A stretch of 64,000 nucleotides of DNA from Conexibacter sp. SYSU D00693 (GCF_017084525.1 NZ_CP070950.1:2604001-2668000), one strand, 5' to 3'; positions 55,054-61,808 are shown, counted from the stretch's first letter. Numbers and translations are program-made. Notes: generated by a model not told the origin, from the sequence alone.

Positions 55054-56718
55054 CTAGCGCGCGGCGAGCGCGAGCTCGGCGGGCGCCACCGGCATGCCGT
55101 AGAGCCAGCCCTGGCCGAAGTCGCAGCCGACGGCGCGCAGGACGTCGTCCTGCTCGCTGGTCTCCACGCCCTCGGCGACCACGTCGAGCCCGAGGGCGGC
55201 GCCCAGCGAGCAGAGGCTGCGGATGAGGGCACGGGCCTCGGGGTCGCGGTGGATGTCCGCGACGAACGAGCGGTCGACCTTGAGGACGTCGACCGGCAGG
55301 GCGCGCAGGTGGCGGACCGACGAGTAGCCCTCGCCGAAGTCGTCGAGCGCGATGCGCACGCCGTCGTCGCGCAGGATGCCCAGCGCCAGCGCGGCCTCCT
55401 CCGGGCGGCGCAGCACCGCGGTCTCCGTGACCTCGAGGCAGAGCGCCGTCCCGGGCAGGCCCGCGTCGTGCAGCGCGCGGCGGACCGTGCCGACGAGGCC
55501 GGGCCGGCCGAGCTGGAGGGCGGAGACGTTGACGGCGACCGTGAGCTGGTGGCCGGCGGCGCGCCACTGCGCGGCCTGGCGGCAGGCCTCGCGGACCACC
55601 CACTCGCCGATCGCGACGATCTGGCCGTCGTCCTCGGCGATCCCCAGGAACTCGCCCGGGCGCAGCCGGCCCCGGTCCGGGTGCTCCCAGCGCAGGAGCG
55701 CCTCGCAGCCGGCGACCGCGTCCGTGCGCAGGTCGACGACGGGCTGGAAGTGCAGGCGCAGCTGGGCAGCGGCGAGCGCACCGCGCAGGTCGGCGGCCAG
55801 GGCGAGGCGGCGGCGGTGCTCGTCGCGCAGGACCTCGTCGAAGCGCTCGGCCCGCGCCCGGCCGCGGGTCTTGGCGCGCTCGAGCGCGACGTCGGCGTCG
55901 CGCAGCAGCTCCTCCGGGTCGAGCGCGCCGTCGGCGGTGTCGGCCACGCCGACGCTGGCGGTCACGCGCAGGCGCTCGCCGTCGACCTCGTAGGGGTCGT
56001 CGAAGCAGCCGAGGATCCGGGGCAGGAGGAGGCGGTCGGCCTCGGGCCCCTCGAAGAGGCAGACGAACTGGTCGCCGGCGAGTCGGGCGAGCGTGTCCTG
56101 TGCACGGATGCGGTGGCGCAGGCGCTGGGCGACGGCGTGCAGCAGCCGGTCGCCGACGCGGTGGCCGTGGGAGGCGTTGACGGTCTTGAACTCGTCGAGG
56201 TCCACGACGACGAAGCCGACGTGCCCGGTGCCCGCGCGCGTCAGGCGCCCCAGCGCCTGCGTGGCGCGGTCGACGAGCAGCGCGCGGTTGGGCAGGCCGG
56301 TCAGCGGGTCGTGCAGCGCTTGGGCCTCGAGCGCCTTGCGGCCGGTGATGTCCTTGGCGACGAGGTAGCAGCGCCGGCCGTCCCAGCTGGCGCTCCACAG
56401 CATCCAGAGCCAGCGGCCGTCGCGGGCGCGCAGGCGGTTCTCGAAGTCGACGACCGTCCCGCGCGCGTCGGAGGTCATGCGGCGGATGACCTCGCGGGTG
56501 GCCGGCACGTCGTCGGGATGCACCAGCCCGTGCCACGGCGAGCCGACGAGGGTGTCCACCTCCCACCCGAGGACGGTGTCCCAGGCGGGGTTCAGCCGCT
56601 CGAGGCGGCCGTCGGCGCCGATGGTCGCCAGGAGGTCGCGGCTGAGGACGAACAGCTGCTCGAGCTCCAGCAGCCGGTCGAGGGCCGGCCCAGCCGGCAG
56701 CTCCTCCTCCGCATCCAC
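55054..56718 (-). CDS. PAS-GGDEF-EAL protein, probable c-di-GMP phosphodiesterase
   Basis: 554 residues. PAS domain about 25-130 (ATIGADGRLERLNPAWDTVL, VDFENRLRARDGRWLWML). GGDEF domain about 140-300 (HDPLTGLPNRALLVDRATQA, DLDEFKTVN). EAL domain from about 315 (CEALLRWEHPDRG, NVSALQLGRPG, ALDDFGEGYSSVRHLR). The GGDEF signature reads AGDQF, losing the catalytic Glu, so cyclase activity is unlikely. The EAL motif, the DDFGEGYSS loop and the Glu of VAEGVE are intact. It should lower c-di-GMP, perhaps with the GGDEF part as GTP sensor. No membrane segment. GTG 56718 chosen; a longer frame exists. Confidence 0.9.
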   Translation of the reverse strand: MDAEEELPAGPALDRLLELEQLFVLSRDLLATIGADGRLERLNPAWDTVLGWEVDTLVGSPWHGLVHPDDVPATREVIRRMTSDARGTVVDFENRLRARDGRWLWMLWSASWDGRRCYLVAKDITGRKALEAQALHDPLTGLPNRALLVDRATQALGRLTRAGTGHVGFVVVDLDEFKTVNASHGHRVGDRLLHAVAQRLRHRIRAQDTLARLAGDQFVCLFEGPEADRLLLPRILGCFDDPYEVDGERLRVTASVGVADTADGALDPEELLRDADVALERAKTRGRARAERFDEVLRDEHRRRLALAADLRGALAAAQLRLHFQPVVDLRTDAVAGCEALLRWEHPDRGRLRPGEFLGIAEDDGQIVAIGEWVVREACRQAAQWRAAGHQLTVAVNVSALQLGRPGLVGTVRRALHDAGLPGTALCLEVTETAVLRRPEEAALALGILRDDGVRIALDDFGEGYSSVRHLRALPVDVLKVDRSFVADIHRDPEARALIRSLCSLGAALGLDVVAEGVETSEQDDVLRAVGCDFGQGWLYGMPVAPAELALAAR

Positions 56719-56780
56719 GGGGCTCTCATCGGTGGTTCGGGCATTGCCCTTTAACCGCCGATGAGGTGAACGGCGGTCCG

Positions 56781-57095
56781 CTAGCCGTCCTGGCGCGCCG
56801 GGATGGTGCGCTGCGCCGCGACCGCCTCGACGACCTCGACGTCCTCGGTCTCCTCCGCGAGGTCCTCGTCGTGCTCGCCGTCGCACAGGACCCGGAAGTT
56901 CCCGCTCACGCCTTGGTCGGCGTGGATCGTGATCCCCGGCAGGACCTCCTCGCCCTCGTCGAAGCCGAGGCGCTCGAGGTCGAAGTGGGCCAGCCCGATC
57001 CCGTAGGCGTTGTGCGTCGGGTTCTCGCGGTCGTGGGCGTTGATGGCGATCTGGAACGCCCGGAGGTTCGCCGCGATCTTCGACGTGTCGGCCAT
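56781..57095 (-). CDS. Hypothetical acidic protein
   Basis: 104 residues. It starts ADTSKIAANLRAFQIAINAH, continues DRENPTHNAYGIGLAHFDLE and VLPGITIHADQGVSGNFRVL, and ends in a very acidic stretch (EHDEDLAEETEDVEVVEAV). No signal peptide or known domain. ATG 57095 is leaderless-type, with TAGCCT nine bases upstream. It lies after the terminator of the TasA-like operon, so it is probably a separate unit. Confidence 0.62.
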   Translation of the reverse strand: MADTSKIAANLRAFQIAINAHDRENPTHNAYGIGLAHFDLERLGFDEGEEVLPGITIHADQGVSGNFRVLCDGEHDEDLAEETEDVEVVEAVAAQRTIPARQDG

Positions 57096-57104
57096 GCGCG
57101 CGGG

Positions 57105-57110
57105 AGGCTA
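57105..57110 (-). promoter_or_regulatory. -10 box, leaderless type
   Basis: TAGCCT on the minus strand, nine bases, then ATG 57095. Confidence 0.45.
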
Positions 57111-57119
57111 GCGCGGGCG

Positions 57120-57144
57120 GCGCGGGGTGGCGAGCACCCCGCGC
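57120..57144 (-). terminator. Hairpin at the end of the SipW/TasA-like operon
   Basis: A perfect 10-bp stem (57120-57129 with 57135-57144) with a five-base loop, nine bases beyond the last stop of the operon. Confidence 0.65.
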
Positions 57145-57153
57145 GCGCCGCGA

Positions 57154-57741
57154 CTAGAGCGTGCTGGAGGCGGTGAAGCGCAGGTTCACGCGGCTGACCG
57201 CGCCCTGCACCGCGTTGTCGCCCGAGGTCGGGCTGGACGGGATGCCGCCGGACGGCAGCGTCGCCGTGAACCGGTAGACGCGGTTCTCCCCCGAGGCGAA
57301 GCGCCCCAGGTTCAGGGAGGACAGGCTCGCGAGCGTCCCGTCGTAGAGGCGCCGCACGCCGGTGCGCGAGCGCTCGTCGACCTTGACGTTGAGCTTCGGC
57401 GAGAGCTTGCCGCCGAAGCGGCCGAGCGTGTCGACGAGGTCCGTGGCCTGCAGGGTGTAGGCGCCGGCCAGCAGGCCGGTGTTCGCCACGCGGACCTCGC
57501 CCCACTTCGACTCGCCGGGCACGAGGCCCTGCGCGGTCAGGACCGTGCCGTTGCCCTTGTCGTTGGTCTGGCCGAACAGCAGGCCGAGCGAGAGGGTGAT
57601 GCGCAGGACCTGGTCCTCGCCGCCCACGACGATCTTGCCCTGGTCGCTGGAGGCGGCGACCGCCACCCCCGCGACCCCGAGCGCCGCCACGACGGCCACG
57701 AGCTGGACCGGCCGGCGGATGATCTGGTTGAACCGGCTCAC
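57154..57741 (-). CDS. TasA/camelysin-like exported protein 3
   Basis: 195 residues. A signal-type N-terminus (VQLVAVVAALGVAGVAVAAS) is followed by a beta-rich domain: VLRITLSLGLLFGQTNDKGN, LVPGESKWGEVRVANTGLLA, GAYTLQATDLVD and RVYRFTATLPSGGI. The strand that includes VPGE then VRVANTG is the TasA/CalY-type core (compare VPGQSATGSVTISNTG in the first gene of this operon). It probably joins an extracellular polymer. GTG 57741 overlaps the stop of the glycine-rich gene. It is the last gene of the operon. Confidence 0.68.
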   Translation of the reverse strand: MSRFNQIIRRPVQLVAVVAALGVAGVAVAASSDQGKIVVGGEDQVLRITLSLGLLFGQTNDKGNGTVLTAQGLVPGESKWGEVRVANTGLLAGAYTLQATDLVDTLGRFGGKLSPKLNVKVDERSRTGVRRLYDGTLASLSSLNLGRFASGENRVYRFTATLPSGGIPSSPTSGDNAVQGAVSRVNLRFTASSTL

Positions 57742-60128
57742 AGGATGCTCCCCCTCTGGCCGGTCTGCCCGGCGTTGCCTGCACTGCCACCGCCGCCACC
57801 GGCGCTGCCGATGGAGAACACCGTGCCGCTGTCGTTGGCCACCGAGCCGCCGAGGCGCAGCACGCCGATGCTCGGGCCGCCGGAACCGCCGCCACCATGG
57901 CCGCCGCTGCCGCCGCTGCCGCCGTTGCCGCCGTTGCCGCCGCAGCCGACCTCGCCGCAGTCGCGGGTCGCCCCGAGACCGCCGGTGCCGCCACCGCCGC
58001 CATTGCCGCCGCCGCCACCACCGCCGCCCGCGCCACCGGTGCCGGTGCTCACGAGCGAGCCGTCGGTGAGCGTCACGGTCGAGGCCCAGAGGTAGATGCC
58101 GATGGACGCGCCGCCCCAGCCGCCACCCGTGCCCGGGAAGCCGCCCTGGCCGCCGCCACCGCCGCCGCCACCGCCGTTGCCGTGGCCGTCGTTGCAGAAG
58201 GTGCAGCCCTGGCCACCGCCACCGCCGCCGCCGCCACCGCCCAGGCCGCTGGCGCCCTGGCCGCCGGTGGCGCCGTTGAAGCCGGCCCAGCCGCCAGAGC
58301 CCGCAGCCGCGAAGCCGTTGCCGCCGGCACCGCCGTTGGGGCCCGCACCGCCGGACGCGCCGCCGCCGCCGTCGTTGCCGCGCCGGCCCGGGTCGCCGCC
58401 CGCACCGCCCGCGCCACCGCCGCCGCCGCCGCAGCCGCCCTGGGCGCCGTTGTCGCCGCGGTTGTTGCCGTAGCGACCGCCCTTGCCGCCGCCACCGCCC
58501 GGGCAGCCGCCGGCCGAGGGCCCACCGCCGCCGCCGGCGCCGCCGGGACCGTTGTCGTCGTTGTCGCCGTCGCCGCCGCGGCTGCCGTCGGTGCCGCGCG
58601 CGCCGCCGCCGCCGGTGGAGCCACCGCCGCCGTTGGCACCCGGCCCGGCGACCGCCGCCGAGGCCTGGAGGGTGATGGTGGAGTTCACGGCGCGGATGCC
58701 GTAGGCGCTCATGCCACCGCCGCGGTTGCCCTCGAAGCGCATCCGCTGCAGCGTCACGTTCGTGTCGCCGTTGGCCAACGCGGCGGAGGCCGAGCCCGTG
58801 ACCGTCGTCGTGGCGTCCCGCGCGCCGGTGAAGCCGGAGCGGTAGGCGCCGAAGACGCTCACGCCCGTGACGAGCTCGAGGCCGTCGGCGCCCTCGTCGT
58901 AGGTGCCTGAGGACACCAGGACCGGACGCCCGCCCGAGCTGTTCACGGCGTTCTGGACGGTGCGCTTGGGCGCCGCCAGCGTGCCGGGGTTGCCGTCGTT
59001 GCCCGACGTCGCGACGAACACCGACCCGGCGGCGTCGCCGTCGACCGTGTCGCAGTTCGTGTCGGCGGACTGCAGGTCCGGCGCGTCGGGCCTGCCCGGC
59101 GCCACGGTGCCGTCGAGCGGCGCGCAGTCGTTGCCGTCGAGCGCGCCGTCGCCGTCGTCGTCGGCGTCGCAGGCGTTGCCGAACGCGTCGCCGTCGGTGT
59201 TCTCCTGGCCGGTGTTCGGGACGAACTGGCAGTTGTCGGAGCCGTCGCTGACGCCGTCGCCGTCGTCGTCGGCGTCACAGGCGTCGCCGGCGCCGTCACC
59301 GTCGGCGTCCTGCTGACCGCCGTTGGCGACGACCCGGCAGTTGTCGTCGCCGTCCGTGACGCCGTCGCCGTCGTCGTCGGCGTCGCACGCGTCGCCCTGG
59401 CCGTCGCCGTCGGTGTCGGCCTGGCCGGGGTCGGGCGTGAACTGGCAGCCGTCCTCGCCGTCCAGGACGCCGTCGCCGTCGTCGTCGCCGTCGCACGCGT
59501 CGCCCTGGCCGTCGCCGTCGGTGTCGGCCTGGCCCGGGTTCGGGACCGACGCGCAGGTGTCGTCGGCGTCCGGCACGCCGTCGCCGTCGTCGTCGGCGTC
59601 GCACTGGTCGGGCTGGCCGTCGCCGTCGAGGTCCGGGAGCTCCGGGTCGGCGCAGGCGTCGATCGTGATCGTCGCCTCGCGCGCCTCACCCGCGTTGCCG
59701 GCGCCGTCGACCGCGTGGAGGCTGAGCGGGCGCTCGCCGTCGGGCGTGTCGTCGCCGACCGTGAAGGTCCGCTGCCAGCCGAAGGCGTCGCCCGGGCCGC
59801 AGCCGTCCTCGCAGGCCTCGAGGTCCTGGTCGTCCCCCGCACCCACGGCGCTGAGGTCGGCCTTCACCGCGGCGACCCCGCTCGAGGGCCGGCCGTCGTC
59901 GGAGACCTTGGCGTACACCGTCGCCTGACCGCCGACCGCGGCGGTGGCGCTGGTCCGGGCGTCGTCGACGACGGGCGCCACGAAGTCGGGCACCGCGCTC
60001 GCGGACTGCGGGGAGGACGAGCTGCTGAAGAACGCCGCGCCCGAGCCGCCGATGGCGGTCACGAGCACCACGAGCAGCGCGACGACGCCCGTCGTCACGC
60101 CCAGCGAGAGCTTGGTCCGGCGGGTCAT
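57738..60128 (-). CDS. Exported TSP3-repeat and glycine-rich protein
   Basis: 796 residues in four parts. A signal/anchor (about 6-29) ends with GGSGAAFFSSSSS. A beta domain follows (about 50-160). About five thrombospondin type 3 repeats (167-336; DADDDGDGVPDADDTC type) should bind calcium. A DUF1565/beta-helix-like part (370-490; VFVATSGNDGNPGTLAAPKR, GVSVFGAYRSGFTG) precedes a ~280-residue glycine-rich region (497-780) of GGxGGx repeats with a few paired Cys (GQGCTFCNDGHG). ATG 60128 overlaps the SipW stop. It is probably a secreted structural protein. The GC-rich repeats also create spurious frames on the other strand. Confidence 0.8.
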   Translation of the reverse strand: MTRRTKLSLGVTTGVVALLVVLVTAIGGSGAAFFSSSSSPQSASAVPDFVAPVVDDARTSATAAVGGQATVYAKVSDDGRPSSGVAAVKADLSAVGAGDDQDLEACEDGCGPGDAFGWQRTFTVGDDTPDGERPLSLHAVDGAGNAGEAREATITIDACADPELPDLDGDGQPDQCDADDDGDGVPDADDTCASVPNPGQADTDGDGQGDACDGDDDGDGVLDGEDGCQFTPDPGQADTDGDGQGDACDADDDGDGVTDGDDNCRVVANGGQQDADGDGAGDACDADDDGDGVSDGSDNCQFVPNTGQENTDGDAFGNACDADDDGDGALDGNDCAPLDGTVAPGRPDAPDLQSADTNCDTVDGDAAGSVFVATSGNDGNPGTLAAPKRTVQNAVNSSGGRPVLVSSGTYDEGADGLELVTGVSVFGAYRSGFTGARDATTTVTGSASAALANGDTNVTLQRMRFEGNRGGGMSAYGIRAVNSTITLQASAAVAGPGANGGGGSTGGGGARGTDGSRGGDGDNDDNGPGGAGGGGGPSAGGCPGGGGGKGGRYGNNRGDNGAQGGCGGGGGGAGGAGGDPGRRGNDGGGGASGGAGPNGGAGGNGFAAAGSGGWAGFNGATGGQGASGLGGGGGGGGGGQGCTFCNDGHGNGGGGGGGGGQGGFPGTGGGWGGASIGIYLWASTVTLTDGSLVSTGTGGAGGGGGGGGNGGGGGTGGLGATRDCGEVGCGGNGGNGGSGGSGGHGGGGSGGPSIGVLRLGGSVANDSGTVFSIGSAGGGGGSAGNAGQTGQRGSIL

Positions 60129-60649
60129 GCCGTCACCTCGAAGCGGATGCGGCCGGGGCTGCTGTCGCGCCACAGGCCGGCGATGAGGGCGAGCGCCAGG
60201 AGCGCCGCCGGGAGACCGATGACGAGCGTGCGCACCCAGCGCACGTCGAGGGCCGCCACGACGTAGCCGACGTGGGGCACCGAGCCGACGACGCGCGGGA
60301 GCTCCGCGGTGGTCGGCGTGAAGGTCCAGGGGTCCGCCACGTCGTTGGCGTCGCCCTTGGTGCGGAACGCGAGCGGCGCGCCCGGCGTGCGGACGACCTC
60401 CGTGATCCGGTGGGTCACGAGCTCGGTGTGACCGGGGGGCTGGAACGTCACGACGTCGCCCGCCCGGAGCTGGTCGCGCGGCGTCGGGTCGCCGAACACC
60501 ACGCTGCCGCGGTCGTAGCTGCCCGTCATGGAGCCGCTGGTGAGGACGTAGCGCTCCATGCCGAAGAGCGCGGGGCCCAGCAGCACGACGGCGAGCGCGA
60601 GCGCGGTCAGCGGCACCAGCACGCCGGCGATGCGACCGGCGAGCGTCAC
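60125..60649 (-). CDS. sipW: SipW-type (ER-type) signal peptidase I
   Basis: 174 residues with N- and C-terminal membrane spans (VLVPLTALALAVVLLGPALF; LVIGLPAALLALALIAGLW). The catalytic Ser is in LTSGSMTGSYDRGSVVF (Ser40). The general base is His (VTHRITEV, His80) where ordinary bacterial type I peptidases have Lys, and Asp lies in RTKGDAND. These mark the ER/SipW subtype, which in Bacillus cleaves TasA and TapA. GTG 60649 overlaps the upstream stop and its TGA overlaps the next ATG, so it is translated with its presumed substrates. Confidence 0.9.
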   Translation of the reverse strand: MTLAGRIAGVLVPLTALALAVVLLGPALFGMERYVLTSGSMTGSYDRGSVVFGDPTPRDQLRAGDVVTFQPPGHTELVTHRITEVVRTPGAPLAFRTKGDANDVADPWTFTPTTAELPRVVGSVPHVGYVVAALDVRWVRTLVIGLPAALLALALIAGLWRDSSPGRIRFEVTA

Positions 60650-61212
60650 TCCCCGGCCTCCATGGCGAACCCGAGCGTGGCCTGCGTGCTCGCGGCCTGC
60701 AGGTCCGGGTCGGCCTCGTCCTGCGGCCAGCTCAGCGTGACCCGGTAGGTCGACGCGCTGCCGGGCGCCGCCGCGCCGAGGGCGGTGCGGTCGGCCGCCG
60801 CGGCCTGGGCGAGGGTGACGCCCTCGAGGACCGGCTCGGCCCCCGGGCACTCGGCACCGCCGGTCGGGCAGCGCTCGAGCGCGAAGCGCAGCACCGAGCT
60901 CAGCGCCGGGCTGGCCGGCACGTCGACGACCTCGGGGGCCGCGTCGAAGAAGGCCTCGGCGTCCGCCGAACCCGCGTTGCTCACGGTCACGGTCCCCGAG
61001 CGCGTGACGCCAGGGCGCAGGCCCGTGGCGTCGGCCACCACGCCCTGACCGTCCTTCGTGCTGGTCAGGCGCAGGTCACCCGCGTCCACGGTGACGTGGG
61101 CCGCGCCGGTCTGGGTGGCGAACGTCGCCCCCGACAGCCCGACCGTGGCCGCCCCGAGGGCGGCCACGGCGAGCGTCGAGAGCGCGATCGCACGAGGCGT
61201 GGAACGCCGCAT
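60646..61212 (-). CDS. TasA/camelysin-like exported protein 2
   Basis: 188 residues. Signal ALSTLAVAALGAATVGL leads into SGATFATQT, resembling the SipW-dependent junction of TasA-type proteins. The mature beta domain follows: VTVDAGDLRLTSTKDGQGVV, LRPGVTRSGTVTVSNAGSAD (typical TasA strand pair) and STYRVTLSWP. A Cys pair (LERCPTGGAECPG) may form a disulphide. ATG 61212 has no strong ribosome site and lies 32 bases after the first gene. Likely cleaved by the adjacent SipW. Confidence 0.75.
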   Translation of the reverse strand: MRRSTPRAIALSTLAVAALGAATVGLSGATFATQTGAAHVTVDAGDLRLTSTKDGQGVVADATGLRPGVTRSGTVTVSNAGSADAEAFFDAAPEVVDVPASPALSSVLRFALERCPTGGAECPGAEPVLEGVTLAQAAAADRTALGAAAPGSASTYRVTLSWPQDEADPDLQAASTQATLGFAMEAGE

Positions 61213-61244
61213 GCCAGGGGAGTGCGTGATCGCGTCCGGCTGGG

Positions 61245-61808
61245 CTAGGAGCCCGCGGAGGCCGACCAGGTGTACGACGTCGTGAACGACGAGCCCTCGT
61301 AGGCGTTGTCGTTCGCGCCGCTGCCCGGGAAGGTGACGGTGAAGTCGTACTGGCGCGAGCCGCCGGCCGGGATGGCCTCGAGGTCGGCGCCGGTGAAGCC
61401 GGCGACGGTGCCCTCGTAGACCGTCGTGCCGCCCGTGGCGACCTTGAGGACGGCGACGTCCTTCAGGGAGGCGGAGGCGTCGCTGTGCGGGTCGTCGCCG
61501 GCCGTGGTGCCGGTGACGGCCTGGGCGACCTTCCAGCCGTTGCCGGCCACGTTGCCCGTGTTGCTGATGGTGACCGAGCCCGTGGCGGACTGCCCCGGGA
61601 CGAGGTTCGAGGCGGTCAGGATCGCCTGACCGTCCTTGTCGGAGCCGGCCTTCAGGATGCCGGCGCTGAAGGTGTTGTTCGGGTTCACCGTCTGGGTGGT
61701 GAACGCGGCGTTCGAGCCGACGACCGCACCGGTGGCGACGAGGACGGCGGACAGCGAACCAAGCGCACGCCAAGGATGGCGCGCGAGGACGTCGAGGCGC
61801 GAGGCCAT
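61245..61808 (-). CDS. TasA/camelysin-like exported protein 1
   Basis: 187 residues. Signal LGSLSAVLVATGAVVGS then NAAFTTQT, VNPNNTFSAG and ILKAGSDKDGQAI. The A-x-F followed by N-x-F-x-AG is a recognisable SipW-substrate pattern. The core has LVPGQSATGSVTISNTGNVA and SRQYDFTVTFPGSG. In Bacillus such proteins polymerise into biofilm fibres; here that is inferred. ATG 61808 has a strong ribosome site (AAGGGGGAG). It is the first gene of a five-gene operon. Confidence 0.8.
   Translation of the reverse strand: MASRLDVLARHPWRALGSLSAVLVATGAVVGSNAAFTTQTVNPNNTFSAGILKAGSDKDGQAILTASNLVPGQSATGSVTISNTGNVAGNGWKVAQAVTGTTAGDDPHSDASASLKDVAVLKVATGGTTVYEGTVAGFTGADLEAIPAGGSRQYDFTVTFPGSGANDNAYEGSSFTTSYTWSASAGS

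What the first reader, a model, noticed from the sequence alone, without database searches (positions are those of the whole stretch)
57154..61808. SipW/TasA-like fibre-export operon in a GC-rich actinobacterium
Seen: five minus-strand genes, four of them linked by 4-base overlaps, encode a Ser/His (SipW-type) signal peptidase, three small TasA/camelysin-like beta proteins and one large repeat protein, closed by a strong terminator. Known: in Bacillus, SipW processes TasA and TapA, which form biofilm fibres. Inferred: this operon builds an extracellular fibre or matrix, with the TSP3/glycine-rich protein as a second, perhaps calcium-dependent, component. I know of no description of this combination.
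Basis: partly seen in the sequence, partly recalled or inferred. Interest (0 to 1): 0.8.

Follow-up and report, generated by a model that had tools for sequence, protein, structure and literature searches.

The report
Actinobacterial TasA-type fibre operon, swapped adhesin
Five linked genes in a high-GC actinobacterium look like a kit for building thin protein fibres on the cell surface, related to the TasA biofilm fibres of Bacillus, with one component whose usual end has been replaced by a large, probably calcium-binding head; similar kits turn out to be common in actinobacteria and seem to be undescribed.

Summary
Genes A (TasA/camelysin), B (TasA-like), C (ER-type Ser/His signal peptidase), D (796 aa) and E (TasA-like) lie at 57154-61808 minus; B-C-D-E are joined by three 4-nt overlaps. 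A passes the Pfam camelysin cut-off; its predicted fold matches the TasA fibre best in the whole PDB. C scores with eukaryotic SEC11 and the archaeal-type signal peptidase model. The operon is conserved: in 108 SipW-like loci a TasA relative lies upstream in 95, and a D-family protein (SipW-type leader plus Ig domain) downstream in 76. Nearly all D-family proteins end in one conserved terminal domain; the window's D has lost it and carries TSP3 repeats plus a glycine-rich module found elsewhere in free-standing secreted proteins. The usual form survives in a second operon of the same genome. Best reading: a SipW-processed, sortase-free, donor-strand fibre; A/B are subunits, D a terminal adhesin or initiator with a swapped head, E an end subunit with an ordinary leader. 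Fibre formation is not shown. I found no paper on actinobacterial SipW-TasA operons. New variant of a known kind.

The parts
61245..61808 (-). Gene A, 187 aa: TasA/camelysin-type subunit; SipW-type leader (SNAA-FTTQTVNPNNTFSAG), mature N-terminus resembles the TasA donor strand
   Evidence: PF12389 27.2 bits against cut-off 22.5; AlphaFold2 model, best PDB match TasA fibre 8aur_A E 9.5e-7, Z 10.5; N-terminal motif score 29.4, p about 0.002
60646..61212 (-). Gene B, 188 aa: second TasA-like subunit with SipW-type leader (SGAT-FATQTG); motif degenerate
   Evidence: Related to A and to TasA-like proteins of relatives; no Pfam or NCBIfam hit; motif p about 0.10
60125..60649 (-). Gene C, 174 aa: ER-type (Ser/His) signal peptidase of the SipW kind
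   Evidence: TIGR02228 67.1 bits against 51.85; SipW model NF046067 58.9 against 190; invariant Ser and His; PDB profile match SEC11C 6.4e-17
57738..60128 (-). Gene D, 796 aa: SipW-type leader, Ig/PKD-like domain (about 50-160), five TSP3 repeats (about 165-360), glycine-rich module (about 365-796)
   Evidence: D-family homologues directly after SipW in 76 of 108 loci; TSP_3 105 bits; confident beta-sandwich at 50-160, best matches Ca-binding PKD domains Z 10.5; same TSP3-glycine architecture free-standing in L160
57154..57741 (-). Gene E, 195 aa: TasA-like protein without the A-x-F SipW-type motif; leader looks like an ordinary signal peptide (GVAVA-ASS)
   Evidence: Related to A (E 1.8e-11) and to last-gene TasA relatives; donor motif absent, p 0.31
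57099..57150 (-). GC-rich hairpin after gene E, possible operon end; no T-run
   Evidence: RNA fold -37.8 kcal/mol, z -1.86; no intrinsic-terminator match

Best explanation
The operon makes a SipW-dependent, sortase-independent surface fibre of the TasA kind. Shown by sequence or model: A is a TasA-type beta-sandwich whose N-terminal segment after the leader is free in the monomer model and carries the TasA-type motif; C is an ER-type signal peptidase; A, B and D carry SipW-type leaders (A-x-F at the cleavage region), E does not; D pairs such a leader with a complete Ig domain, and its C-terminal half is a head exchanged for TSP3 repeats plus a glycine-rich module. Inferred: after cleavage by C, the N-terminal strand of one A/B subunit fills the groove of the next (donor-strand exchange). 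D, with its own closed Ig fold, can only give a strand and so starts or caps the fibre, like TapA, while displaying a calcium-stiffened head for adhesion. E, matured by the ordinary signal peptidase and lacking the motif, sits at the other end or at the wall.
For: TasA identity of A: (29 of 38 relatives hit PF12389). Residues 29-42 of A and 28-38 of D are the lowest-confidence, unpaired part after the leader in the models, the place of the donor strand. TasA polymerises by such a strand, and TapA starts it with a TasA-like N-terminus and a complete Ig fold (PMC9674648; PMC10151520). Proteins in the slot after SipW score in 15 of 28 cases with the TasA mature N-terminal motif at the leader end (p <= 0.05); 13 last-gene TasA proteins of Thermoleophilia do not. 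Phe at P2' hinders ordinary signal peptidase but SipW cuts there (PMC10269814). Ser/His enzyme; the genome has a separate ordinary signal peptidase. Operon conserved. D head swap. No sortase near: the two sortases lie elsewhere.
Against: No experiment; fibre formation, secretion and cleavage are inferred. The window's own D scores poorly for the donor motif (p 0.55) although it keeps the A-x-F leader end; B is marginal (p 0.10). B and E reach no curated model. C is far below the cut-off of the Bacillus SipW model. The motif test cannot separate 'SipW recognition' from 'donor strand'. The TSP3 and glycine-rich parts of D have no confident model. E has an N-terminal extension that could hold a different strand. 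In six other genomes of the genus no D relative was found, and a C relative only as one weak match, so the operon is dispensable there.
Confidence: 0.6

Rival explanations
1. The genes make non-filamentous surface proteins: TasA/CalY-like adhesins held at the cell surface and released by C, with D as a free matrix adhesin; no ordered donor-strand fibre is built.
For: CalY of B. cereus is reported to act as a surface adhesin before it forms fibres (PMC13082335). The fold is also near other Ig/PapD-like domains.
Against: The free N-terminal segment, its conservation and the TasA fibre as the one strong fold match point to polymerisation; three TasA-like genes in one operon suit a heteropolymer.
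Confidence: 0.2
2. D is not part of the fibre but a separately secreted calcium-dependent matrix protein that merely uses the same signal peptidase; its TSP3/glycine head cross-links the matrix as in MtsC-like cohesion proteins.
For: The same TSP3 plus glycine-rich architecture occurs as a free-standing secreted protein without SipW-type leader (L160); D hits NF047638 MtsC through its TSP3 repeats, below cut-off; D's own donor motif is weak.
Against: D-family proteins follow SipW in 76 of 108 loci and slot proteins share the TasA-like N-terminus in many cases; D overlaps both C and E by 4 nt.
Confidence: 0.25
3. Chance neighbours: unrelated small beta proteins beside a signal peptidase.
For: None beyond the missing curated-model hits of B and E.
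Against: Same gene order in many genera of the order and in Nocardioides, Microbacterium, Aeromicrobium, Knoellia and others.
Confidence: 0.02

Closest known systems
tapA-sipW-tasA operon of Bacillus subtilis
   Same: SipW-type peptidase beside TasA-type subunit; an accessory protein with a complete Ig fold (TapA; here the D family); sortase-free
   Different: Here three TasA-like genes; D shows no detected sequence relation to TapA and carries a large modular head; E lacks the SipW-type leader; gene order differs
sipW-tasA-capP-calY locus of Bacillus cereus (CapP = BC1280)
   Same: Two TasA-type subunits plus one chaperone-like partner, processed by SipW (PMC13082335, PMC10151520)
   Different: D family is Ig/Big-type with adhesin heads; relation to CapP not tested
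sipW-bsaABC operon of Clostridium perfringens
   Same: SipW with the filament-forming secreted protein BsaA and further secreted proteins in one operon (PMC7395162)
   Different: A scores only 16.4 bits with the BsaA-family model against a cut-off of 60; no D-like partner described
Archaeal bundling pili and archaeal threads
   Same: Donor-strand filaments; threads have a putative cap with donor strand but no acceptor groove (PMC9715654); the A profile also touches archaeal AbpX weakly
   Different: Archaeal; no SipW operon of this form and no TSP3 head
Free-standing TSP3 plus glycine-rich secreted proteins of the same order (for example L160)
   Same: Same C-terminal module as D, 47% identity over 134 residues, with TSP3 in front
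   Different: Ordinary leader, no Ig base; no SipW operon seen with it

Membership tests
TasA/camelysin family (PF12389) | Score above the curated cut-off | tested here: met
   A 27.2 against 22.5 bits; B and E have no hit, but are related to A
TasA/camelysin family (PF12389) | TasA beta-sandwich fold | tested here: met
   A: 8aur_A E 9.5e-7, the only match at or below 1e-3; Z 10.5, rmsd 3.2 over 140 residues
TasA/camelysin family (PF12389) | N-terminal donor strand after a SipW-type leader | tested here: inconclusive
   Motif strong in A, marginal in B, absent in E; strand exchange itself cannot be tested here
B. subtilis TasA equivalog (NF046066) | Score above cut-off 450 | tested here: not met
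   A 16 bits: a relative, not that protein
ER-type signal peptidase I (TIGR02228) | Score above cut-off and Ser/His dyad | tested here: met
   C 67.1 against 51.85 bits; S40 and H80 invariant in 15 sequences; SEC11C 6.4e-17
Bacillus SipW equivalog (NF046067) | Score above cut-off 190 | tested here: not met
   C 58.9 bits: works like SipW, not filed as that equivalog
Thrombospondin type 3 repeat proteins (PF02412) | Repeat score above cut-off | tested here: met
   D 105 bits, five stretches
TapA | Sequence relation to TapA | tested here: inconclusive
   The D-family profile finds no TapA chain in the PDB at E <= 0.1; the analogy rests on leader and closed Ig fold
Sortase-assembled pili | Sortase in the cluster | tested here: not met
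   No sortase in the operon; two elsewhere in the genome
TasA-type fibre system | Forms extracellular filaments | not testable with these tools
   Needs microscopy

The most novel reading that the evidence does not exclude
Actinomycetota hold a widespread, undescribed class of sortase-free donor-strand pili, encoded as TasA - SipW - adhesin (- TasA), in which the protein after SipW is a donor-only end piece with exchangeable heads (Ig repeats with a conserved terminal domain, CBM3, invasin-like Big_1, or TSP3 plus glycine-rich module as here), and the last TasA, without SipW-type leader, is an acceptor-only opposite end.
Probability: 0.4. Interest if true: 0.75.

Novelty: new variant of a known kind. 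Interest (0 to 1): 0.52.

Why it matters
TasA fibres are studied almost only in Bacillus. Finding a conserved TasA-SipW operon with its own partner protein across actinobacteria, including much-studied genera such as Nocardioides and Microbacterium, would give a large group of soil and water bacteria a fibre system that seems unstudied, and would show how such fibres get different heads. It also makes the question of what starts, ends and decorates a TasA fibre testable: donor-only and acceptor-only parts seem to be encoded side by side.

Tried and rejected
Sequence search of A alone against the PDB gave only chance haemoglobin hits; the profile of 38 relatives was needed. A 15-member alignment of C was too diverse for the genome scan. 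The literature searches for SipW/TasA in actinobacteria gave nothing specific; the archaeal bundling pili paper is not held. A right-handed beta-helix for the glycine-rich module was considered from the look of the sequence: no Pfam domain supports it and the model there is of low confidence, so it is not claimed. A foreign origin by composition finds no support: operon GC 0.758 against 0.76 for the window. The structural search of D is filled by the Ig domain; nothing is said about the fold of the rest.

Full report
WHAT IS THERE. Five minus-strand genes fill 57154-61808. A is separated from B by 32 nt; B/C, C/D and D/E overlap by 4 nt. The window is part of a 4.43 Mb single-contig genome.

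THE SMALL PROTEINS. A passes the Pfam cut-off for camelysin/TasA (27.2 against 22.5 bits) and 29 of 38 members of its alignment also hit that family. B and E hit no curated model but are related to A and to TasA-like genes of relatives. The AlphaFold2 model of A (mean pLDDT 77.7) finds the TasA fibre 8aur_A as its only PDB match at E <= 1e-3 (9.5e-7); on re-alignment Z is 10.5 over 140 residues, followed by the TasA monomers at 8.5. A profile of 38 relatives finds TasA first in the PDB (1.6e-8). Residues 29-42 of A, just after the leader helix, are the unordered part, where TasA has its donor strand (PMC9674648).

THE PEPTIDASE. C is an ER-type signal peptidase: TIGR02228 67.1 against 51.85 bits, the Bacillus SipW model below its cut-off (58.9 of 190), Ser and His invariant with the GDAN motif, SEC11C as best PDB relative (6.4e-17). 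The genome has a normal signal peptidase elsewhere, so C looks dedicated. In Bacillus the Phe at P2' of TasA hinders the ordinary enzyme and SipW does the job (PMC10269814). A, B and D end their leaders in A-x-F; E does not.

CONSERVATION. A second operon in the same genome (about G000:C1:3747460-3750160) holds A, C and a D-family protein. In 232 genomes of the order the N-terminal part of D is found in 19, in three families and 15 genera, but in none of six others of the genus. In 108 SipW-like loci collected from the order and from named GTDB genomes, TasA-like genes lie upstream in 95 and D-family genes downstream in 76; for named Actinomycetota the figures are 68 and 59 of 70. These loci were gathered with C (and partly D) as query, and a few are the same contig met twice, so they are not a random sample of SipW genes. 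In an even draw of 296 Actinomycetota genomes 43 have a PF12389 match over the cut-off.

PROTEIN D. Its relatives, placed right after SipW, consist of a SipW-type leader, a variable number of Ig-like repeats and a conserved terminal domain, often with the ending E-S-G-x-x-D-x-F (Pfam Big_7, Big_13 and weak Big_5). Of 73 complete D-family sequences 61 end in a D-x-F-like form and several more in D-x-L or D-x-Y. The window's D keeps the leader and the first Ig domain, modelled with pLDDT near 92 and closest to calcium-bound PKD domains (Z 10.5 over 85 residues), but then runs into five TSP3 repeats and a 430-residue part with 40% glycine. That last part is a module of its own: 20 of 232 genomes of the order have it, and L160 has TSP3 repeats followed by the same module behind an ordinary leader. 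D is therefore best seen as a fusion of the fibre-operon base with a head from a free-standing surface protein. Other heads occur in the same slot: CBM3 in Nocardioides L112 and invasin-like Big_1 repeats in L082.

DONOR AND ACCEPTOR LOGIC. A position matrix made from the first 18 mature residues of 69 A-type proteins was scored on N-terminal regions against shuffles. Fifteen of 28 D-family or slot proteins score with p <= 0.05 at the leader end; 13 last-gene TasA-like proteins of Thermoleophilia do not, while three of Nocardioides do. The window's A scores strongly, B marginally (p 0.10), D not (p 0.55), E not (p 0.31). TapA of Bacillus, with a TasA-like N-terminus and a closed Ig fold, starts TasA fibres (PMC9674648, PMC10151520), and a cap without acceptor groove is proposed for archaeal threads (PMC9715654). 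The D family fits the donor-only role and the E type could be the acceptor-only end. This is an inference; the motif may also be just the recognition site of the peptidase.

COMPARISON AND NOVELTY. The system works like tapA-sipW-tasA and the sipW loci of B. cereus and C. perfringens, and A belongs to the TasA/camelysin family. It differs in the D family, in the exchangeable heads, and in the E type. TasA-like systems are known to be widespread (PMC10903470), but no paper found in the library describes the actinobacterial operons; subscription papers are not covered. New variant of a known kind; the TSP3-glycine swap in D is special to this window among the loci seen.

Noticed in passing
window 55054-56754 (-): PAS-GGDEF-EAL protein (c-di-GMP turnover) on the same strand about 0.4 kb after the fibre operon; a possible regulatory link to matrix production.
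   Followed up: partly
window 56781-57095 (-): 104-aa ORF between the fibre operon and the GGDEF-EAL gene, no Pfam hit.
   Followed up: partly
G000:C1:3747460-3750160 (L047): Second TasA-SipW-D operon of the same genome with the canonical D form (four Big_7 domains, conserved terminal domain).
   Followed up: yes
G000:C1:3661961-3662401 (L048): Orphan TasA-like protein; no SipW or D relative was found in the 19 kb around it, and it lacks the A-x-F leader end.
   Followed up: partly
L052, L050, L070, L088 and others, C-terminus of D-family proteins: Conserved terminal domain ending E-S-G-x-x-D-x-F with only weak Big_5 matches; looks like an undescribed domain.
   Followed up: partly
L053:3738-4757, L073:9537-10427: Last-gene TasA-like proteins with C-terminal RTX calcium-binding repeats.
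   Followed up: partly
L160, L162, L164, L169, L171: Family of secreted proteins of the same order with the glycine-rich module of D joined to different N-terminal domains (TSP3, CARDB, MopE-like metal-binding motif).
   Followed up: partly
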